From a virus: 58,189 nt of DNA. A model generated the notes under the pieces. That model ran no database searches. It was not told where the DNA came from and worked only from the letters and a program-made list of their open reading frames with translations. The DNA is taken from IMG/VR virus record IMGVR_UViG_3300037225_001359, positions 1 through 58,189 of that record. One strand, given 5' to 3'. The stretch's first letter is position 1; every line of letters starts with the position of its first letter. The position numbers and the translations under genes are program-made. Shown in pieces: positions 21,914-58,189 of the stretch.

Positions 21914-22504
21914 TTAAAAAACCTTTCCTGTGTCTATACCCGATGCAGCAGAAGTAGGATATGTAACTGCACCAGTAATAATTGTATTAACAATTGCAGC
22001 TGAAATTGATGTCGCTATTGCCGATCCAATTCCGTCTGCTAAATCTCCGCTTTTAGTTCCTGAAATTGAAGATGCAACCATGAAAAGTTTTATTGAACTT
22101 CCAACCGAAGCACCGACAATTCCTGAAATCGTTCCAATTCCTGCACCAATTCCGACAGGAACACTTGTTGAGGTTACTTGTCCTGAAAGAATATGTATTG
22201 CAAATGCATCTCCAATAGCAGAAGCCAAATCAGCCATTTTTGTACCAGAAATACTTTTTGCAATCAAATTTGCTATGATTAATGAAGTAACACTTACACC
22301 GACAATTCCAGATATTGTTCCTGTTCCGATTCCTGAGCCTGGACCAACTCCAGTTGCTGTTCCTGAATATGAATTACTTTTTAAAATTTCTGTTACTATA
22401 CCATTTCCAATTGCATTTGCAAGACTCAGCGCTTTTGTTCCAGTGAATCCCTTTGATGTAAAATTTGTGAATATTAAAGATCCAAGAATTGTTCCACTCA
22501 ACAT
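21914..22504 (-). CDS. Gly/Ser-rich triple-repeat protein at the iscB insertion site
   Basis: 196 residues made of three repeats of about 60, each containing SGTK then a helix like LADGIGSAIATSI or LASAIGDAFAIHI, followed by a Gly-rich linker (GVGPGSGIGTGTISGIVG). The repeats look like amphipathic helical pairs joined by flexible loops. I have a vague memory of similar modules in other large tailed phages, but cannot name the family. The ATG lies three bases beyond the predicted right end of the iscB element and lacks a clear ribosome site, so the insertion may have separated the gene from its original leader. Rejoining the two flanks puts a TAG in frame just upstream, which supports this ATG as the true start. 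Confidence 0.7.
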   Translation of the reverse strand: MLSGTILGSLIFTNFTSKGFTGTKALSLANAIGNGIVTEILKSNSYSGTATGVGPGSGIGTGTISGIVGVSVTSLIIANLIAKSISGTKMADLASAIGDAFAIHILSGQVTSTSVPVGIGAGIGTISGIVGASVGSSIKLFMVASSISGTKSGDLADGIGSAIATSISAAIVNTIITGAVTYPTSAASGIDTGKVF

Positions 22505-22538
22505 GATTGACTCGTTTCATGATCTTACGAAAAGGAAA

Positions 22539-22577
22539 CCCACGGAGCGAGGCTTTGCGAGCGTCTTTAGCCGTGGG
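22539..22577 (-). repeat. Right-end hairpin of the iscB element
   Basis: A 7-bp GC-rich stem, CCCACGG / CCGTGGG, around a 25-base loop, 17 bases after the iscB stop. CCCACGGCTAAAG is a common form at IS200/IS605 element ends. Its high GC content stands out against the AT-rich phage, which fits imported DNA. It might also help end transcription, but no T-run follows. Confidence 0.75.
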
Positions 22578-22593
22578 AGGAATTTCGCTCTAC

Positions 22594-23787
22594 TTAATAG
22601 ATTGATTGTGTATGAAAAACATTTTCTACTTTTTTAATACTAAAATCAAAATTTTTAATATTATTTGTACAAAGGATCCATTTTCCATAACAATGACAAC
22701 CCTTAACAATATATTTTTTATCTTTTATCCAAATTATATCTCCGGGTTGAATAGAATACCTCTGCCTTCTTATTGATGGTTTAAAGCCTTTTCTATTAAG
22801 TTGAAGAACTCTGTTATTTTTATGTTTTTGTTTTAAAATAATAGGTTGAACTTTAGTTTGACTATTTCCACCAGCGATAACAAAGGCATCATTGTAATGA
22901 GTCTTTTCTAATCTCAAATTATTTCTTTTAACGAATGTTTCATTACCATAAGTTAATTTGCAATCAGGAAATATTTTTCTAAATCTCCATCGAATTATAT
23001 TCATAAATGTTGTATCTTTATATTGTTTATTCTTTTTCAGCAAACTAAAAGATCGGTTTTTATGTAATTTTTTATGACAAGATTCGTGAAGTAATGCTAA
23101 ATTCTTTTCCCTATCAGTACCGCCTTTACTTTTTTGTATTATATGGTGAATGTGCGAAGAATTACCTTTACTAAACTCTTTATTGCACAATTGACATTTA
23201 CCTTGTTCTCTTGCTAACAAGAAACTTCTCATATTTTGATATTCAAACATTGAACCTTGTTGATATTGTATACCTGCAATATCTGGATTTTCTATCTTTT
23301 GAATATCAAAATTACCAACTTCAATTGTAATATTTTTGATTGGTAATAACTTTTTAAGTTTATTTATTAATGTAATATGAGTATCAAACTTTCTCTGTGC
23401 AGACGGTGGTAGCCAACCTTTCTCTATCTTTCTATTATTAAATCTTGGTTTACGATACCACAATTTATTTCTACGTCCTCTTCGGTACATTGCGCGTTCA
23501 GTGAGTCTGTCGGATGTTTTATTATCTAAAATCAATGTACCACTGTCAATTTCTTTTTTGTTTGTAATAACCGAAAATCCGATATTCTTAGAACCTGAAT
23601 CGATACCAAGTGAACATTCTTGGACTTGTTCTCCACTTGCGCGATTTAACTGAATAACAAAAAATGGATTAGTTTTTACGACATGGGCATCTCTCCTTTT
23701 TAGAAGTAATCTTGCTTTCCTTGCAGAGCAAGGCATCAACGAATTACCCCGTTGATTAAGTACATAAGCAATAACAGGAACTCTCAA
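22594..23787 (-). CDS. iscB: IscB RNA-guided endonuclease (RuvC + HNH)
   Basis: 397 residues from a TTG start that has AGGGAGG seven bases upstream; this is the normal IscB length. The order is: an RRxRR-type N-terminal (PLMP) domain at about 1-50 (LNQRG, LMPCSARKARLLLK), RuvC-I with D63 in GIDSGSKNIGF, an Arg-rich bridge helix (about 93-120, YRRGRRNKLWYRKPRF), RuvC-II with E156 in ITIEVGNF, an HNH domain (about 195-243) with CQLC, HIHHI, NLALL and ESCHKKLH, RuvC-III with H297 and D300 in THYNDAFVIAGG, and a basic C-terminal target-binding part. All catalytic residues are present, so it is probably active. The frame stays open to 23982, but those extra 65 residues overlap the omega-RNA and match no IscB domain. 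Known biology: IscB cuts DNA matched by its omega-RNA guide. In a phage it may act like a homing endonuclease. Confidence 0.93.
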   Translation of the reverse strand: MRVPVIAYVLNQRGNSLMPCSARKARLLLKRRDAHVVKTNPFFVIQLNRASGEQVQECSLGIDSGSKNIGFSVITNKKEIDSGTLILDNKTSDRLTERAMYRRGRRNKLWYRKPRFNNRKIEKGWLPPSAQRKFDTHITLINKLKKLLPIKNITIEVGNFDIQKIENPDIAGIQYQQGSMFEYQNMRSFLLAREQGKCQLCNKEFSKGNSSHIHHIIQKSKGGTDREKNLALLHESCHKKLHKNRSFSLLKKNKQYKDTTFMNIIRWRFRKIFPDCKLTYGNETFVKRNNLRLEKTHYNDAFVIAGGNSQTKVQPIILKQKHKNNRVLQLNRKGFKPSIRRQRYSIQPGDIIWIKDKKYIVKGCHCYGKWILCTNNIKNFDFSIKKVENVFHTQSIY

Positions 23788-24032
23788 GCCCTGTCCTCCC
23801 TTATGTTGGAGTAGATCCACATCGAGGTTGTTTAAAGTCAGTACTTTATCCTGTACACTAAGACTTTGGTCTTTGTTTAATACAGAATTTGTAGAGCTAC
23901 AGACTTGTGGAGTATCTGTAGGTACGTTCTTTAACTTTACTTTAAACTTCTGCATAAGATTTAACCTTTGCCCTCTAATCAACTCTTACGTTGAACCTCA
24001 CGATTCAAGCCTACTTCTTTAGAAGTAGGTAG
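23788..24032 (-). ncRNA. Putative IscB omega-RNA (HEARO RNA)
   Basis: About 245 bases upstream of iscB, rich in small stems. These include the left-end hairpin (CCTACTTC, 4-base loop, GAAGTAGG), GAATC/GGTTC near 24000, a stem of CTACAGA with TCTGTAG, AAGAC/GTCTT, and CTCC with GGAG just before the start codon. The segment CAACGTAAGAGTTGATTAGA recalls the conserved core of known IscB-associated RNAs. In IscB loci the omega-RNA lies 5' of the gene and its guide is the flank outside the left end, here about 24033-24052. The RNA boundaries are inferred, not folded. Confidence 0.65.
24010..24029 (-). repeat. Left-end hairpin of the iscB element
   Basis: A perfect 8-bp stem (CCTACTTC / GAAGTAGG) with a 4-base loop, three bases inside the proposed left tip. 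This type of subterminal hairpin is typical of IS200/IS605 ends and also starts the omega-RNA scaffold. Confidence 0.75.
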
Positions 24033-24095
24033 TTGACTTCTAGATGTTCTACGAAGCCATTAGATTGATTTTAATTGTTTAGTAATGGATTACCA

Positions 24096-25925
24096 TTAAC
24101 TAGATGCTTTGACTGTCTGGCTACCAATAAGTGGAGCCCCAGTTACGTAATCAAGGTGTGTCAAGGTTGTTATCACACCACCTCGTACTGGTAATTGTCC
24201 GATATCAACAGACGGAGCGATCAATTCAATTTTTACTCCACTTCCGAGTTTAACTTTTAAGAGTCCATTGACCTCAACTTGCTGTGTTACTGAATTTATT
24301 TTAACATTTCCTAACAATGTTTTGATTTCCATCGAACCGGTCATTATTTCAAGAAAATCGACAACAGTCGTCGGAACAACAGGAATAGCATTTTTTGTGC
24401 CAGCAATCGTTACTGTTTGGCTTTCACCAATTGTCACTTGTTTATCTTTAATTATCGTTTCTTTATAAGATCCTCCATACACATTGCTCTTATCATTTAA
24501 ATAGTTTTCAATTTTCGTTCCTAACACTTCTTCAGTAATTTTTCCTGTAACTGTAATTTTATAATCACCTGAAACAGTGACAAAATAATTTCCATTAACA
24601 TTATATGCGACATTTCCTTGTGCACTAAAATCAATAGCATTTCCATTTTTATCAGGTGCTAAAATCCGTGTATAAATTCCACCCTGCGTTGTTGTTTCAA
24701 TGCTTCTTAAATTTGCTGCTTCAACACCGTATGTTTCTTTTGTGCTACCGAATGTATCAATAATAACTGAATGTCCAAGATTATCTTTTCCAACAAGCCA
24801 TTTTATTGCACCGTCAAAATTACTTTCCCAACTTCTGCCATTTCCCAGGGGATGTTGCGCAGTTGAAGCAGCAAAATTAGTGAAAAAATGACCTTGTTTA
24901 TCAATATCAATTTTTGTGCCTGAACGAAATTTTAATTGAAATGCTGAAGCCAAAGTATCATATTCTTCAGGTAAACATCCAAGATCGTCAACAGTTGGTG
25001 TAGTATCATTTTGAGTTCCAAAAACTTGTGGTCTTAAAATTTTTGCATATCTATTTATGTTTGTCGCATCATTTCCGACGTTTGTTCCAATAATAAACGT
25101 TACATCAGGCGATAAATTTGTAATATCCATTCCCGCATTGACTTCATTGACATTTAAAATACCATCACCCTTATGATACGCTTCAATTCGATATTCTGTA
25201 TATGGTTTTCCTCCTAAATGAAATGGATTTTGAGAATCAGTTGCTATATAAACTTTTTGACCATCAGGAAGAACAGTCGGAGAAATGAATTCATTGCCCT
25301 GCAACGGTTGTCTTGTGATCATTCCGTTCCAAGTTCGAGCCGCTTCTGATGAACTATATTGTTGAAGAGAAGACATCCGAATCGATTGGTCATTTGAATT
25401 TATTTCTATCTCTGAAAGCTTGCTATCAGAGATTAAAACATTATCATCAAGATAAACCTCAGCTCCATTCGATGATTCAATATCAATTTCACCCGGATAA
25501 ACTTTTCTAGCTTTCTGACGAACAATGTTGAAACCAATTTTGTCCTGAATTGTTGAAATATCTTGAAGATTTGAACTAGCTTTTGCACGTGTTAATTGAT
25601 AGTTATGCTTTTCAATATAAGCTCCATCAAAATACGCTAAAATTACCGGTTCATCCAGTGTTGCTGTTTGTCTTCTCCATCCACAAATAACTAAGTTTCC
25701 CTCTTCTGGCATCGTTTTAATATGTCCTCTTTGTCCCGAAAAAGCTGAAGTAAGATTAATTTTAGAATAAGTTCCTACATTATCAACCCATTCAAGGTCT
25801 ATCGTTCCTTTTTCATAATCAGAATAAATTACACGCCCAATTCTAATACGAGCATATGACTCATATCGACCATAATATGGTTTTTCTTTTAATCCTATTT
25901 TTCTTGCTATAGGAATTTTTGTCAT
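24096..25925 (-). CDS. Baseplate central spike (gp5 / gpV-like)
   Basis: 609 residues. An N-terminal OB-fold at about 25-115 is recognisable from RIGRVIYSDYEKGTIDLEW, the HIKTMPEEGNLVICGWRRQ stretch and PVILAYFDG, the pattern of gp5 / P2 gpV / VgrG spikes. A middle domain contains SIETTTQGGIYTRILAPD. The C-terminal third is a series of short beta repeats (GNYFVTVSGDYKITVTGKIT; KDKQVTIGESQTVTIAG), consistent with a triple-stranded beta-helix needle. It overlaps the hub gene by 4 bases, so the two are coupled. No lysozyme domain is seen, unlike T4 gp5. The iscB element is inserted a few dozen bases after its stop. Confidence 0.85.
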   Translation of the reverse strand: MTKIPIARKIGLKEKPYYGRYESYARIRIGRVIYSDYEKGTIDLEWVDNVGTYSKINLTSAFSGQRGHIKTMPEEGNLVICGWRRQTATLDEPVILAYFDGAYIEKHNYQLTRAKASSNLQDISTIQDKIGFNIVRQKARKVYPGEIDIESSNGAEVYLDDNVLISDSKLSEIEINSNDQSIRMSSLQQYSSSEAARTWNGMITRQPLQGNEFISPTVLPDGQKVYIATDSQNPFHLGGKPYTEYRIEAYHKGDGILNVNEVNAGMDITNLSPDVTFIIGTNVGNDATNINRYAKILRPQVFGTQNDTTPTVDDLGCLPEEYDTLASAFQLKFRSGTKIDIDKQGHFFTNFAASTAQHPLGNGRSWESNFDGAIKWLVGKDNLGHSVIIDTFGSTKETYGVEAANLRSIETTTQGGIYTRILAPDKNGNAIDFSAQGNVAYNVNGNYFVTVSGDYKITVTGKITEEVLGTKIENYLNDKSNVYGGSYKETIIKDKQVTIGESQTVTIAGTKNAIPVVPTTVVDFLEIMTGSMEIKTLLGNVKINSVTQQVEVNGLLKVKLGSGVKIELIAPSVDIGQLPVRGGVITTLTHLDYVTGAPLIGSQTVKASS

Positions 25926-45894: not shown

Positions 45895-48891
45895 TTACTT
45901 TGTGCTGCCAGTCAAATTCATGACTCTGACAACTTCTTTCAAATTTCTTTGTGCAGCCTCAAAATTTGGATTTAAAGCGATGGCTTGTCTGAGGAATAAC
46001 AATGCTTGCTGAAATTTTCGAGTTCTAGCAAATTCTATAGCTTTTTCATTATATGCAATATCTAAAAGACCCCACGGTTGAACGATGCTTCTATATTTTT
46101 TCATCAAAGGTTCAACGATCAGTATCGTTTCATCAAACTTTCTTAATACATTACAGCAATAAGCATAATCACCGAAAGCTTTCAAATCTTTTGTGACATG
46201 AATTATCTTACGAAAGCAATCATAAGACTTTTGATAATCGTTTAATTTTGCATATGTAATTCCCAAATGTCGATATGCATATTCAGTCTCTTTAATTTGT
46301 AATGATTTTTTGAAATATTTTTCAGCACTTGCATAATTTTCCAATAAATTATACGTTGTTCCTATTTTCGACAAAAAATCGACATTGCCCGGTTCAATTT
46401 CTAATGCTTTTCTCCATAAAACTAGAGCTTCATCGTAATCATTCAAAGCCATATATTGAGTGGCCAGTTCAAAAATTGCCTTTACATCATCTTTTTTATT
46501 TTTCAGTTTTTCAATTCCCAGCCTTAAATATAAATTGTCTTTATTTTGTCTATTTTTTAAATACCCAAAATGTAATATCTGAATTTGTGCATTTTTGACA
46601 GGTACATTTATTGACTCTTCAACAAGTTCATGAACTTTGCCAACAAATTGTATTTGTTTATTCGTTTGAAATAATCTAATTTTGACAGACCAACACCAAC
46701 CGACAAAATCTTTGTCTTCTTTGTATCTTCCGTCGCATGCTCTGACACCTTCAATATTTCTGTCAGTCACATAATTTCTAGTTTCGAAATTATATGCAAA
46801 ATTGTCTCCTTGTAGCATTTCTCTCAGTTTTAGCAAATCTTTCGAAGCAATTCTTTCATCGGCATCAAGAATTAATGTCCACTTTTGAGTTGCTTTTGAA
46901 AGAGCAAAATTTCTAGCTGCTGAAAAATCATCATTCCATTCAAAATGGTATAATTTTACACCGAACCGCTTGGCTATCTGTATTGTCTCATCCGTCGATC
47001 CAGTATCTACAATGATAATTTCATTTGCAATTGTTTTAATACTTTCAAGACATTGTTGTAAATATTCTTGCTCATTTTTGACAATCATACAAACAGATAA
47101 ACTCTCTGTTTCTTTCTTCAGAGACTCAAAATATAAATCGTAGAAAAGTTTTTCAAGCTTGTCGATCTGATTATACCAAACATATTGTTTCGACGTTTTT
47201 ATGCCCTGATCTGCTAGTCTGTCATATAATTTTTCATCTTTTAATAGTAAATCTAGCTTTTCTCTGATTGCTTGAGAATTTTCTGCATGAACAACCAAAG
47301 CATTGAATCCATCAACTGCATAATCCATGACACCGCCACAATCAGAAGTAATAACGGGTGTACCACTTGCCATTGATTCCAATGGCGGTAAGCTAAAACC
47401 TTCAACTTTTTTCGAAGCATTTATCGTAATATCGCAAGACCCATAAACTTTTGCGATCTCATCTTGTGTCATCTGCGTCATTAAATGAAATTCACAATCA
47501 AGATTAGTTTCCGATCGAACAGATCCTGATAATCTTACTAATTCAATTTTTTTAGATTCTACTAAATCACGAATTGCTGCTAAAGCAAAACGAATTCCCT
47601 TAATTTCTAATCCGTCGTTTCCTGTTACTAAAACACGAACTTTTTCATTTCTTTTATGTTTTTCAAAAGAAAACACGTTTTGGTCAAGTCCATTGCTAAT
47701 ATAATGACAATTAATTCCATACTCTTCATCAATAATTTTCTTTAACCAATTCGATACAACAATTTTTTCTTTTGTAATTCTATAATTATTTTTGATTGTA
47801 CTCAACATACTTATATCTGAGTATAACTGAGCTTCATAACCCTGACATAAATGAAGTTTCACTTTTGCATTAACGAGCTGCAAAAATGGCAAAGTCGAAA
47901 AATATGTTCCTATCAAAATATCACAATCAGGAATATTTGTCAAGCTATAAATAATTGGTACTTTGACAGGAAACCATGGTTTTGATTCTTTAACGCCACA
48001 ATGAATTTTGACATCATGACCTCTTGCTCTCAGTCTATTGGCCTGTTCAAAAATTACTTTTACACCACCAGATGGACCGTCTGATGCCATTAAATAAATA
48101 ATTTTTAGAGGGTTTTTTATTTCATTGGCTTTATCAATTCGCTTTGATTTATACCACTTCAGTTCATGGATTTTTTGATTCTTTTCTAAAAGTTCAGTCG
48201 GTGTCGGATCATCATATTCTTCCTTAAATGATTTCCCGCCATAATGATAAATAAAAACGCCCTTTGCACAGCACATTTTATAACCACGTTCAATAGCTCT
48301 TAAACATAAGTCATCATCTTCAAAATTGCCGATTCCATATCTTTCGTCGAAATTGCCTATTTTGTCTAAATATTCACGTTTTGTCAAGATACAAAAACCG
48401 ACTAGTCGCCTTGTTTGAAGAACTTCAAATTTATTTTTGTCAAATTGTTGTTTTGAAAATTCCTGAATTTTAGAATCATCATCACTATCCAACGGTTGAA
48501 AATATTTGAATTTTACTTTTTGCTGATCTGATGAAATAACATTTGAAGTCGGTCCTACAAATGCAACTTTTTGCTCTTGTAAAACATGAATCATATTCGA
48601 TAGCCAATTTTCAGTGACTATCGTATCAGAATTTAAAAAACAAATATATTCTGCATTACTAATTTCTAGCGCTTGATTGTTTGCATGACCGAATCCGTAA
48701 TTTTTGTTATTGTAAATTACTTTTATTGTATCGCACTGTATCGATTTCAAATAATCTATAGAACTCTGATTTGATTTATTATCTACAATAATTATTTTTG
48801 CATCAGCACTATATAACTTAACAGAATTTATACACTTCTTTAAAAATTCTATCGCATTATAACTAACAATTATGATGTCAACTTTTTCCAT
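45895..48891 (-). CDS. Multidomain glycosyltransferase (GT2-GT4-GT2-TPR)
   Basis: 998 residues with four parts. Residues 1-240: GT2 fold (VDIIIVSYNAIEFLKKCI, CFLNSDTIV as donor-binding motif, FEDDDLCLRAIERGYKM). About 265-600: GT4/GT-B type (SGGVKVIFEQANRLRARGHD, then VRVLVTGND, and EGFSLPPLESMASGTPVITS with the E-x7-E phosphate site). About 610-810: a second GT2 domain (SVCMIVKNEQEYLQQCLESI, ILDADERIAS as the DxD motif). About 840-990: TPR repeats (YDEALVLWRKALEIEPGN; YASAEKYFKKSLQI). Such proteins assemble oligosaccharides on proteins or surface polymers. In a phage they may glycosylate virion proteins or change host surface glycans. The start overlaps the Cys-rich gene. Confidence 0.9.
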   Translation of the reverse strand: MEKVDIIIVSYNAIEFLKKCINSVKLYSADAKIIIVDNKSNQSSIDYLKSIQCDTIKVIYNNKNYGFGHANNQALEISNAEYICFLNSDTIVTENWLSNMIHVLQEQKVAFVGPTSNVISSDQQKVKFKYFQPLDSDDDSKIQEFSKQQFDKNKFEVLQTRRLVGFCILTKREYLDKIGNFDERYGIGNFEDDDLCLRAIERGYKMCCAKGVFIYHYGGKSFKEEYDDPTPTELLEKNQKIHELKWYKSKRIDKANEIKNPLKIIYLMASDGPSGGVKVIFEQANRLRARGHDVKIHCGVKESKPWFPVKVPIIYSLTNIPDCDILIGTYFSTLPFLQLVNAKVKLHLCQGYEAQLYSDISMLSTIKNNYRITKEKIVVSNWLKKIIDEEYGINCHYISNGLDQNVFSFEKHKRNEKVRVLVTGNDGLEIKGIRFALAAIRDLVESKKIELVRLSGSVRSETNLDCEFHLMTQMTQDEIAKVYGSCDITINASKKVEGFSLPPLESMASGTPVITSDCGGVMDYAVDGFNALVVHAENSQAIREKLDLLLKDEKLYDRLADQGIKTSKQYVWYNQIDKLEKLFYDLYFESLKKETESLSVCMIVKNEQEYLQQCLESIKTIANEIIIVDTGSTDETIQIAKRFGVKLYHFEWNDDFSAARNFALSKATQKWTLILDADERIASKDLLKLREMLQGDNFAYNFETRNYVTDRNIEGVRACDGRYKEDKDFVGWCWSVKIRLFQTNKQIQFVGKVHELVEESINVPVKNAQIQILHFGYLKNRQNKDNLYLRLGIEKLKNKKDDVKAIFELATQYMALNDYDEALVLWRKALEIEPGNVDFLSKIGTTYNLLENYASAEKYFKKSLQIKETEYAYRHLGITYAKLNDYQKSYDCFRKIIHVTKDLKAFGDYAYCCNVLRKFDETILIVEPLMKKYRSIVQPWGLLDIAYNEKAIEFARTRKFQQALLFLRQAIALNPNFEAAQRNLKEVVRVMNLTGSTK

Positions 48892-50465: not shown

Positions 50466-53444
50466 TTACATCAACCGATTCACTTGGCCTTGTTTTTCAA
50501 ATAATACTATTCGACCAGTATTGTTGTCTCTCCAATTATTTGAAGAAGTGATATTTTGTTTATTTGTTTCTTTGATAAAGTTTCGTGCTGTTGTCATGGA
50601 CATTGAACTGAGCTCCATAATTGTATATTGATCGTTTTGTTGATCTACAAAATTTTGAGCTTGTTCTAATTCTTGTGCCATGACAACAATGTTTGCTATA
50701 GTCGAAATTTCAGTCGCGTTAATATAATTTACCCTTATTGATGTACTAATTCCGCCATTTATAGAAAGAGTCACAAAATATATCCCCAATGAACTATAAA
50801 GATGCGCCGGATTTTGTAAAGTACTTGTATTACCATCACCAAAATTCCAAGACCAGCTTATTGCTCCAATACTATCGTCAGTAAAATTGACAGTTAAAGG
50901 AATTCCTCCAGAAGTGATATTTGCATGAAAATTCGCAGAGACTAATGCTGCTAATACCATTATATAATTTGTCATAGTCTTTGTACTTGCTCCACTATTT
51001 ATGCTCAATATCACAGTGTATATTCCAGCAACACTATAAATGTGTGTTGGATTTTGTAAAGTACTTGTACTGCCATCACCAAAGTTCCAATTCCATGTTG
51101 TAGCTCCAATACTGTCATCGATAAAGCTTACGGACAATGGAACATATCCCAACGTCGGTACTGCATGAAAATCAGCAGTAGCCAAAGACGTCGTAGTAAA
51201 TTCTAATTTTACAGGTACTGGTTGTACTGCACCGCCAGCTGATTCTGCTACGAAATAAACATCATAAGTTGTCGATGCAACAAGATTATGAGCAGATAAT
51301 ATTGCTTCAATATTTTCACTTAATGTTCCAAAATCCGCGAATCCAGACGGTACGGGAACATCTGATGCATCAGTTCCATACTGCACTTGTTCAGAATTGG
51401 GTGCAGGATCTCCATGAGGAATAACTACGAAAAAACCATCACCAGTCGATGTTATTTCTAATAAAAAATCGGCATCATTTTTGTCTATCGTGCCCAATTT
51501 CGGATAGGTTGCTGCCCAATCAGGAGTTGTACCAAATGCAACTACTTCAGGAAAATCTTGTAGAATACCGTCACTTTCTGCAACAATCCATGCCTGATAC
51601 ATTGTACCAGAAGATAAATTACTTGCACTACAATGATTTCTAACATTTGCTACCAAAGCAACATTGCCCTTTAAGCCAGCAGCTACAGGAACATCCAAAG
51701 CATTAGTTCCCGCTTTGACTTGTGCTGATGTTGGTTCAGTATCATCATAGGGAAGTGTAACAAAATAGACAGTTGAATCAATGTCAGTTTCTACACCATA
51801 TCTTGCTGTAACATCAGTACTGTTATCAATAACAGGAGTGCCATCGACCCAATTGGGTTTGATTAATTCTATTTTCACAGGTGTTGCTTGCAATTCTCCT
51901 GTATCAATAGATAATGCTACAAAGTATGAATCATAATAATCGGATTCAATTAAATTAAAAGCAGATAAGAGCTCTTCGATATTTGGCGGACACATTACAC
52001 TACCATAAAAACCCACTGCTAACGGAGTATCAGATGCATCTGTACCTGCTTGTACTTGAGACGAGTTAGGAGCAGGATCTCCATGAGGTACAACTGCCAT
52101 GTATGAAGCACAATTAGTTTTTGTTTTAACTAAGAAATCAGCAGAAATATCTGTTAATACATTCACTTTTGGATAAGTTGCCGCCCAATCGGGTTTAGTT
52201 CCAAATTCAACTTCTAAAGCAACGGCTTGTAAACCAGCAGCACTTCCTGCAACAATCCAAGCTTCATACATTGTACCACCTAACAAATTAGTTGCTGTAC
52301 AATGTGTTTCAACATTAGCACTGAGAGAGATGCTACCATGAAATCCGGTTGCAACTGGAACGTCTGCTGCATTTGTTCCTGCCGCTACTTGAGCAGATGT
52401 CGGTTGATCATCACCATAGGGAACTACTACAAAATATGCAGTAGAATTAATGTCAGTTTCCATATCAAAACGCGCAGTAGTATCAGTTACGGCATCAATA
52501 GCAGGTTCTTCAACCCAATTAGGGATTGAAAACATGAATCCAGCACCTACAGCTACTCTTGTATTTCCCCACCAATCATTTTCGTATCCAGCATAACTTC
52601 CAGATCCCGTTATTATAATATCTACATTTATAACGTCTATATTCCAATCAGCTTGAACGGCATCCCATGATGGTGTTAAAACTGATTCCGGAGCCCAATT
52701 AACCTGCGAGTTTGTTATTGTCGAAGTTCCTCCCGTAGGAGAAGCTTCAAAAGCACAATAGTCTGCTGTAAAAATAACATTACCTAATAAAACTATGGGA
52801 CACTCAAATACTGTGTTAACAATATTTGCAGATATTGTTTGCGCAAAAGTGCTGAAGTTAACAGTTTTAGATGCAGCGTCAGAAGTAATAGCTATTCTTG
52901 AACCTTTTATATTAATACTAAAGTCGGTAAAACCATTATCATTGTTTTCAATAATAAGAAATGAAGCATTTGAATTTTTTCCAGTTATATTTATAGAACT
53001 ATCAATAATGTCAACATTTGTAATACCTATTGATGTGCTACAACTCAAATCTATTTCAGAACTTGACGTTTCTATTATGCCATTTTTTATCACACTAAAG
53101 CCACTAATAAGCATTGCTGTTGTAATAACCGGAAAGGGAGTAACATTAGACACTGTAGAAATTTTCCAACGCCATGGATTTAAGCCCCATTGACTAAAAC
53201 GAACTTCTTTTATAGATGTATTATTGATTGAAAAACTATCACTAGGATCAATTACAAACACAGCATCCCATGATCCCTTAACGAGATAGTCCCCTTCTTG
53301 TAAAATCACTAATTCATATGTAGAAGTTTCAGGCACGACATTATAAAACGCGAACTGGTTCTGCCCCATACAATTTTCTGGGGTTAATCCGTCTTTTGTT
53401 CCCTGTCCTTCCGCATTACCAATGTCAAGATAATATTGATTCAT
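50466..53444 (-). CDS. Fibre-like protein with beta-helix, ABAB repeats and two PKD domains
   Basis: 992 residues. Residues 1-300 look like a right-handed beta helix (IDLSCSTSIGITNVDIID, SSINITGKNSNASFLII). About 305-755 is a four-part ABAB array: A modules (TSAQVAAGTNAADVPVATG ... MYEAWIVA) and B modules (VVPHGDPAPNSxQV ... YFVA) alternate. About 756-915 has two PKD domains (TTWNWNFGDGSTSTLQNPTH and the related WSWNFGDGNTSTLQN). The last 75 residues (NIVVMAQELEQAQNFVDQQ to NRLM) are nearly identical to the end of the 326-residue protein. PKD and beta-helix domains suggest carbohydrate or surface binding. There is no ribosome site, and a 17-bp hairpin stands just upstream. Confidence 0.8.
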   Translation of the reverse strand: MNQYYLDIGNAEGQGTKDGLTPENCMGQNQFAFYNVVPETSTYELVILQEGDYLVKGSWDAVFVIDPSDSFSINNTSIKEVRFSQWGLNPWRWKISTVSNVTPFPVITTAMLISGFSVIKNGIIETSSSEIDLSCSTSIGITNVDIIDSSINITGKNSNASFLIIENNDNGFTDFSINIKGSRIAITSDAASKTVNFSTFAQTISANIVNTVFECPIVLLGNVIFTADYCAFEASPTGGTSTITNSQVNWAPESVLTPSWDAVQADWNIDVINVDIIITGSGSYAGYENDWWGNTRVAVGAGFMFSIPNWVEEPAIDAVTDTTARFDMETDINSTAYFVVVPYGDDQPTSAQVAAGTNAADVPVATGFHGSISLSANVETHCTATNLLGGTMYEAWIVAGSAAGLQAVALEVEFGTKPDWAATYPKVNVLTDISADFLVKTKTNCASYMAVVPHGDPAPNSSQVQAGTDASDTPLAVGFYGSVMCPPNIEELLSAFNLIESDYYDSYFVALSIDTGELQATPVKIELIKPNWVDGTPVIDNSTDVTARYGVETDIDSTVYFVTLPYDDTEPTSAQVKAGTNALDVPVAAGLKGNVALVANVRNHCSASNLSSGTMYQAWIVAESDGILQDFPEVVAFGTTPDWAATYPKLGTIDKNDADFLLEITSTGDGFFVVIPHGDPAPNSEQVQYGTDASDVPVPSGFADFGTLSENIEAILSAHNLVASTTYDVYFVAESAGGAVQPVPVKLEFTTTSLATADFHAVPTLGYVPLSVSFIDDSIGATTWNWNFGDGSTSTLQNPTHIYSVAGIYTVILSINSGASTKTMTNYIMVLAALVSANFHANITSGGIPLTVNFTDDSIGAISWSWNFGDGNTSTLQNPAHLYSSLGIYFVTLSINGGISTSIRVNYINATEISTIANIVVMAQELEQAQNFVDQQNDQYTIMELSSMSMTTARNFIKETNKQNITSSNNWRDNNTGRIVLFEKQGQVNRLM

Positions 53445-57611: not shown

Positions 57612-58189
57612 CATTCATCATGGTCTAAAAGCATCTCAAAAGTCTTTACGGACTTAAGTTGGGTCAACCATAGACCCTTATTTGGTTCGATTGGGCATTT
57701 TAAATTTTTCTGCATAATGTTTACAGACCCATTTCCGTCTCTACTAAATCTTAGATCTTTCGCTAATTCAACAACTCTATCTGACAATTTTAATTTTTTG
57801 TCAAATCTTTTGCCTGTTAAACAATTAGTTTGAGAAGTCCAAGCTTCGTCTTGTTTAACAAACTCTATTCCTTTGTCTTCGGCTTTGTATCCGACAAAGA
57901 ACTTAAATCTACTCAAACAGCCCTGGTTCTGAGTTGATTTATTTAATCCTGAATTTCTTTTTCTTTCCTTTCTATTTTGTCCTTTGACTTTCTTTTTTAC
58001 TAACTTTTTTGTCTGAATATCGCCATAAATAATTTTATTGACGTTATTTTCTTGACAATATTCAATTATCTTTTTACTGACTTTATGTTGAAAGTCTTTG
58101 TTCTTATTCGTTAAATTTCTTTTTAGTCTTTTGTAAACTCTTTTTAGCTTTTTCCAGCGTCTTGACTTTTTCTTTTTGTGATCAAGTAA
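57578..58189 (-). CDS. tnpB: TnpB-family RNA-guided nuclease, N-terminus outside the window
   Basis: The frame is open from the window edge to the stop at 57578: 203 visible codons including many Lys/Arg (KKKKSRRWKKLKRVYKRLKR). VNKIIYGDIQTKKL is the RuvC-II region (a GD form seen in some TnpB groups rather than ED), then YKAEDKGIEFVKQDEAWTSQ, the conserved stretch before the zinc finger, and LRFSRDGNGSVNIMQK, the RuvC-III motif with its Asp. The zinc finger is replaced by TNCLTGKRFDKKLKLSDRVV with a single Cys; I recall such CLTGKxF variants in proteobacterial TnpBs. The RuvC-I residue and the start cannot be seen. Translation with ATG alone would hide this gene, because no Met occurs early in the visible part. 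Confidence 0.85.
   Translation of the reverse strand, partial: LLDHKKKKSRRWKKLKRVYKRLKRNLTNKNKDFQHKVSKKIIEYCQENNVNKIIYGDIQTKKLVKKKVKGQNRKERKRNSGLNKSTQNQGCLSRFKFFVGYKAEDKGIEFVKQDEAWTSQTNCLTGKRFDKKLKLSDRVVELAKDLRFSRDGNGSVNIMQKNLKCPIEPNKGLWLTQLKSVKTFEMLLDHDEWIKSELKLNKV

What the first reader, a model, noticed from the sequence alone, without database searches (positions are those of the whole stretch)
22507..24032. Complete IscB/omega-RNA element inside the baseplate operon of a phage
All IscB catalytic residues are intact, the upstream RNA region is structured, both ends carry hairpins, and no transposase is present. It sits exactly between two baseplate genes in the direction of transcription, so virion-gene transcription would also make nuclease and guide RNA. 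A phage-borne IscB could act as a programmable homing endonuclease against related phages, which would be a new use of this system.
Basis: partly seen in the sequence, partly recalled or inferred. Interest (0 to 1): 0.75.

Follow-up and report, generated by a model that had tools for sequence, protein, structure and literature searches.

The report
Phage-borne RNA-guided IscB homing-like element
A tail-gene operon of a large uncultured phage carries an intact RNA-guided DNA-cutting element (IscB with its guide RNA) at a spot that is empty in four related phages, and comparison with other phages suggests that such elements spread as parasites by cutting copies of the site that lack them.

Summary
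The HEARO/omega-RNA model hits 23811-24037 (minus) at 112 bits, E 2e-22; the ORF that follows is an IscB with RuvC-I, -II, -III and HNH residues intact. A hairpin closes the right end (22528-22588). No Y1 transposase is present. The element lies between a baseplate-hub-like gene and a 196-aa gene; these two are adjacent and uninterrupted in four related phages, each with an IscB elsewhere. Protein codons are under purifying selection (pS ~0.7, pN ~0.2), whereas codons inside the omega-RNA are equally constrained at all sites (~0.2 each). IscB is 54-72% identical between phages whose backbone proteins are 23-59% identical. Insertion sites mostly differ; remnants and RNA-only deletion derivatives occur. 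Isolated phages show occupied and empty alleles (Silviavirus, Nodularia phages); in Silviavirus the predicted guide matches the empty allele exactly and the flanking target copy is synonymously recoded. This supports an RNA-guided homing-like life cycle, but expression, cleavage and TAM are untested. IscB/OMEGA elements, TnpB gene drive and HEARO in phages are already known, so I call it a new member of a known kind.

The parts
23811..24037 (-). omega-RNA (HEARO, RF02033); left end of the element begins GTCAAC at 24037
   Evidence: Rfam full-length hit 112.3 bits, E 2.2e-22; RNA-level constraint in overlapping codons
24038..24057 (-). predicted guide segment: left flank directly 5' of the omega-RNA (GCTTCGTAGAACATCTAGAA read 5'-3' on minus)
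   Evidence: position relative to the HEARO start; single occurrence in the window. Guide role inferred from known IscB architecture, not tested
22594..23955 (-). iscB ORF from the conserved ATG inside the omega-RNA (frame open from TTG 23982; alternative start TTG 23787 next to the PLMP region)
   Evidence: Pfam RRXRR/HNH, PDB IscB hits, alignment A1, start codons
22888..23601 (-). span of catalytic residues: RuvC-I D128 (codon at 23601), RuvC-II E221 (23322), HNH H279/H280 (23148/23145), RuvC-III H362/D365 (22899/22890)
22528..22588 (-). right-end hairpin (CGAAATTCCTCCCACGGCTAAAG...CCGTGGGTTTCCTTTTCG), like right ends of L027, L034, L046, L047, L050
24096..25925 (-). upstream flank: baseplate-hub-like protein, intact
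   Evidence: weak gp5 hits; homologues in G013, G031, G021, G008
21914..22504 (-). downstream flank: 196-aa protein, intact; its homologue directly follows the hub gene in four relatives without iscB

Best explanation
The segment 22528-24037 is an intact, transposase-less IscB/omega-RNA element that behaves in phages as an RNA-guided homing-like parasite. Shown: structure, intact nuclease, selection on RNA and protein, clean insertion relative to four empty homologous sites, different insertion sites in other phages, IscB conserved far beyond the phage backbones. Inferred: transcribed with the tail operon, the omega-RNA takes the flanking phage sequence at its 5' end as guide; IscB then cuts co-infecting related genomes at the same site when it is empty, and repair from the occupied genome copies the element in. 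The occupied copy is spared because the element separates the guide match from the target-adjacent motif.
For: HEARO hit and IscB domains. pS ~0.7 / pN ~0.2 in the body against ~0.2 / ~0.2 in the omega-RNA overlap. Empty hub/196-aa junctions in G013, G031, G021, G008. IscB identity 54-72% against backbone 23-59%, and 69-70% in G005/G006 where no backbone match was found. Insertions after gp32, in the nrd region, after primase and after a tail fibre. Internal-deletion derivative in L015, iscB remnant in G006, HEARO-only copy in G021, HEARO-only copy in L035. Y1 TnpA absent in 42 of 44 carrier records and near only 6 of 79 viral loci, all distant members. Silviavirus: 7 occupied genomes among 56 matching; guide exact in the empty allele; target copy on the right recoded AGT to TCG with Ser kept. 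Nodularia kac68v162 occupied versus kac68v161 empty with flanks at least 99.7% identical.
Against: No close relative of the window phage is held, so its own guide target and TAM could not be shown. No RNA, binding or cleavage data. A conserved right-end hairpin fits mobilisation by a Y1 transposase in trans. The clearest occupied/empty pairs are in distant IscBs (about 28-30% identical). The recoded target is probably a single event inherited by 7 phages.
Confidence: 0.62

Rival explanations
1. A non-autonomous IS200/IS605-type transposon, moved in trans by a Y1 TnpA of the host or of another phage; IscB mainly restores the element at the donor site after excision.
For: Hairpins at both ends, right-end hairpin shared with relatives; Y1 TnpA near iscB in distant members L058, L067, L072, L074, L076 and in bacterial L176, L177.
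Against: No TnpA found in the records of the close clade; no obvious constant target motif at the left end over more than 30 sites; several close members lack the right-end hairpin.
Confidence: 0.22
2. A domesticated weapon: the phage keeps IscB to exclude competing phages or other mobile DNA, with benefit to the phage rather than to the element.
For: Purifying selection on protein and RNA; a guide from the phage's own genome would cut related phages that lack the element.
Against: The guide sits in a poorly conserved spacer of this phage group; patchy sites, remnants and deletion derivatives point to a selfish cycle of gain and loss.
Confidence: 0.1
3. A recent passenger insertion, currently without function in the phage.
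For: Tail genes on both sides stay intact; the element is absent from the site in four relatives.
Against: Intact catalytic residues and strong codon-level selection across phage copies.
Confidence: 0.06

Closest known systems
IscB/omega-RNA (OMEGA) elements, HEARO RF02033, OgeuIscB as solved example
   Same: PLMP region, RuvC split by HNH, RRXRR bridge, HEARO RNA directly upstream with the guide position at its 5' end
   Different: no TnpA; phage tail operon; frame open into the omega-RNA; belongs to a clade whose members above 60% identity were found only in viral contigs
TnpB of IS200/IS605 as gene drive in plasmids (PMC11870625)
   Same: nuclease guided to the empty insertion site, biasing inheritance
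   Different: different nuclease family, guide at the other end of the element; shown experimentally there, not here
Phage homing endonucleases (HNH/GIY-YIG, group I intron endonucleases)
   Same: patchy insertion near conserved phage genes, gain-loss cycle, occupied and empty alleles
   Different: recognition would be by RNA taken from the flank rather than by protein
HEARO in Staphylococcus Silviavirus (PMC13346280) and IsrB insertion in Microcystis phage Mic1 tnpB (PMC11237433)
   Same: IscB-family element inserted in a phage genome
   Different: distant sequence; different sites; no homing role proposed in the passages read

Membership tests
IscB/omega-RNA | RuvC interrupted by HNH, with catalytic residues | tested here: met
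   Pfam and PDB hits; D128, E221, H279/H280, H362/D365
IscB/omega-RNA | HEARO RNA immediately upstream, same strand | tested here: met
   RF02033 112.3 bits
IscB/omega-RNA | RNA-guided DNA cleavage with a TAM | not testable with these tools
   needs biochemistry
IS200/IS605 transposon | Y1 TnpA in the element | tested here: not met
   PF01797 absent from the record
IS200/IS605 transposon | hairpins at both ends | tested here: met
   HEARO 5' hairpin and right-end hairpin
IS200/IS605 transposon | constant short target next to the left end | tested here: inconclusive
   left flanks differ at more than 30 sites by inspection; no information-content test was run and some left ends are extrapolated
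homing element | empty homologous alleles | tested here: met
   four distant relatives of the window phage; near-identical alleles only for distant IscBs in Silviavirus and Nodularia phages
homing element | nuclease cuts the empty allele; biased transfer | not testable with these tools
   guide matches the empty allele in Silviavirus; cutting not tested
homing element | recognition site conserved in related genomes | tested here: inconclusive
   uninterrupted junction in 30 Silviavirus records at >=99% identity; for the window the guide lies in a non-conserved spacer

The most novel reading that the evidence does not exclude
A phage-specialised clade of IscB elements has dropped the transposase and lives as reprogrammable homing elements: each insertion automatically rewrites the guide to its new site, so the element can home anywhere in phage genomes, and RNA-only derivatives ride on the nuclease in trans.
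Probability: 0.4. Interest if true: 0.78.

Novelty: new member of a known kind. Interest (0 to 1): 0.52.

Why it matters
The natural role of IscB, the relative of Cas9's ancestor, is inferred mostly from transposons. Phage copies with occupied and empty alleles in isolated phages (Silviavirus VL10 versus Remus/Romulus; Nodularia phages kac68v162 versus v161) would let one test by a simple phage cross whether IscB drives its own inheritance. If so, homing extends from protein-read sites to RNA-read sites that are reprogrammed by each insertion.

Tried and rejected
Close relatives of the flanking window genes by peptide-pattern scans of IMG/VR: none; the relatives came from searching the records of other IscB carriers. 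A second copy of the guide in the window: none. A duplicated target on the right side of the window element, as in Silviavirus: local alignment no better than shuffles, P 0.34; the same test on the Silviavirus locus was not significant either (0.16, it locked on another pair of stretches), so that duplication rests on reading the aligned alleles and the kept amino acids. A TAM motif from right flanks: too few certain right ends, left open. The right-end hairpin as a stray TnpB right end: its repeated presence just after iscB in different loci argues against that. Clostridioides phage pCD1602_4 gave no clean empty allele. The primary papers on OMEGA and on TnpB spread are not held. No structure prediction was run, because solved IscBs match by sequence.

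Full report
What is there. The window is a 58,189-base IMG/VR virus record with its long ORFs nearly all on the minus strand. The HEARO covariance model matches 24037-23811 (minus) end to end, 112.3 bits, E 2.2e-22, and nothing else in Rfam matches the window. The ORF that follows, 22594-23982, carries RRXRR and HNH domains and aligns with solved IscBs. The catalytic residues of RuvC-I, -II, -III and HNH are intact and invariant in twelve aligned phage copies. After the stop codon comes a hairpin, 22528-22588, built as ATTC-N-TCC, stem, CTAAAG-like loop, stem, TTT-N-CTT, which recurs at the same place in L027, L034, L046, L047 and L050 with variations.

Selection. A script compared codons among seven related phage elements. 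In the body of iscB the proportion of changed synonymous sites is about 0.6-0.8 and of nonsynonymous sites about 0.2: the protein is maintained. In the 48 codons that lie inside the omega-RNA both are about 0.1-0.28: there the constraint is on the RNA. The frame nevertheless stays open through the omega-RNA in all twelve loci (0 stops, against 2-7 in the other frames), and length differences in this stretch are multiples of three. Since the sequences are related and RNA-constrained, this only suggests that an N-terminal extension is translated.

Where it sits. The flanking hub-like protein (24096-25925) and the 196-aa protein (21914-22504) have homologues in four other virus records, G013, G031, G021 and G008. 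In all four the two genes follow each other directly without iscB: four empty sites, though distant ones (hub identity 23-40% over the full match). G013 is collinear with much of the window. Each of these four phages has an IscB of 54-72% identity at another place, while their other shared proteins are only 23-59% identical to the window's; in each of the four, no shared ORF reached the IscB value. G005 and G006 carry IscBs of 69-70% identity with no backbone match found. Other close copies sit after a gp32-like SSB gene (empty in L017), in the region after ribonucleotide reductase, after primase, and after a tail fibre. G008 and G003/G031 have theirs downstream of the same virion gene.

Gain and loss. 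L015 holds a HEARO joined to the last codons of iscB with the body deleted; G006 has a C-terminal iscB remnant at 57867-58058; G021 has a HEARO without iscB at 137454. L035 has a HEARO-only copy with a right-end hairpin 1.2 kb upstream of a full one. This is what a cycle of invasion, decay and re-invasion would leave.

Transposase. Y1 TnpA is absent from 42 of 44 carrier records including the window. A tblastn with the TnpA of L058 finds one within the fetched stretch in 6 of 79 viral loci, all distant members (38-44% identity to the window IscB), and in 2 of 28 bacterial or archaeal loci plus one weak partial hit in L163; a single query protein will miss divergent TnpAs. The same alignment query returned no bacterial or archaeal IscB above 55% identity, so the close clade is so far seen only in viral contigs.

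Occupied and empty alleles in isolates. Silviavirus: 56 records match the region; 7 contain the element, and the others that are listed show two pieces with the element missing. In Remus the sequence ACATGACAAATAGTAAAAAAAA is followed by AGGTGATG; in VL10 the same sequence runs straight into the element, so the predicted guide matches the empty allele exactly. On the right side VL10 has TGACAAATTCGAAGAAAAAAGGTGATG, the same start of the RusA-like resolvase gene with serine AGT changed to TCG. The empty Silviavirus and Kayvirus alleles that were read have AGT or AGC. So one copy has the guide match without the following motif, and the other has the motif with mismatches: both would escape cleavage. 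This is one event shared by seven phages, and that the recoding was selected is an inference. Nodularia phage kac68v162 carries an IscB inside an IS607 tnpB gene; kac68v161 has the uninterrupted gene, with flanks at least 99.7% identical.

Most likely mechanism. Shown: anatomy, intact nuclease, selection, scattered insertion, empty sites. Inferred from IscB biochemistry reported elsewhere (PMC9755519): the RNA carries the left flank as guide and the RNP cuts targets with an adjacent motif. Inferred: in mixed infections the empty allele is cut and repaired from the occupied one. How the element reaches new, unrelated sites is open; rare Y1 transposition in trans is the obvious candidate.

Known and new. 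TnpB has been shown to act as a gene drive in plasmids and is described as akin to homing endonucleases (PMC11870625). HEARO nucleases occur on viral contigs (over 16%) and are rarely linked to TnpA (PMC9755519). HEARO is listed in Silviavirus genomes without a role in the passages read (PMC13346280), and an IsrB gene inserted in the tnpB of phage Mic1 has been reported (PMC11237433). In the open-access papers searched I found none that treats phage IscB as a homing element; subscription papers and preprints were mostly not available. I file the window element as a new member of a known kind, with the homing life cycle as a supported but untested reading.

Noticed in passing
L015:4950-5204; L035:2718-3150; L134:11455-11640 (record G021 at 137454-137639): HEARO copies without a nuclease gene, at least two of them looking like clean internal-deletion derivatives; they could act as guide RNAs in trans for a full-length IscB.
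   Followed up: partly
window 23811-23955: The iscB reading frame stays open through the omega-RNA in all 12 close copies, so RNA and protein N-terminus may overlap.
   Followed up: partly
window 45895-48891: A 998-aa ORF matching several different glycosyltransferase families along one chain.
   Followed up: no
L002:6441-7379: An HNH/homing-endonuclease-like gene lies directly after the IscB element; relatives of it occur in record G008 at about 50600-52540.
   Followed up: no
L005:4213-4950: The upstream gene reads into the omega-RNA and takes its last dozen or so codons and its stop from it, so the insertion probably gave the phage protein a new C-terminus.
   Followed up: partly
L156:2289-3802 (MK605246.1): IscB inserted inside an IS607 tnpB gene of a Nodularia phage, one mobile nuclease gene breaking another, like the IsrB case in phage Mic1.
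   Followed up: partly
L097:266-1900: iscB with an adjacent Y1 TnpA gene on a viral contig: a possibly autonomous member of the family.
   Followed up: no
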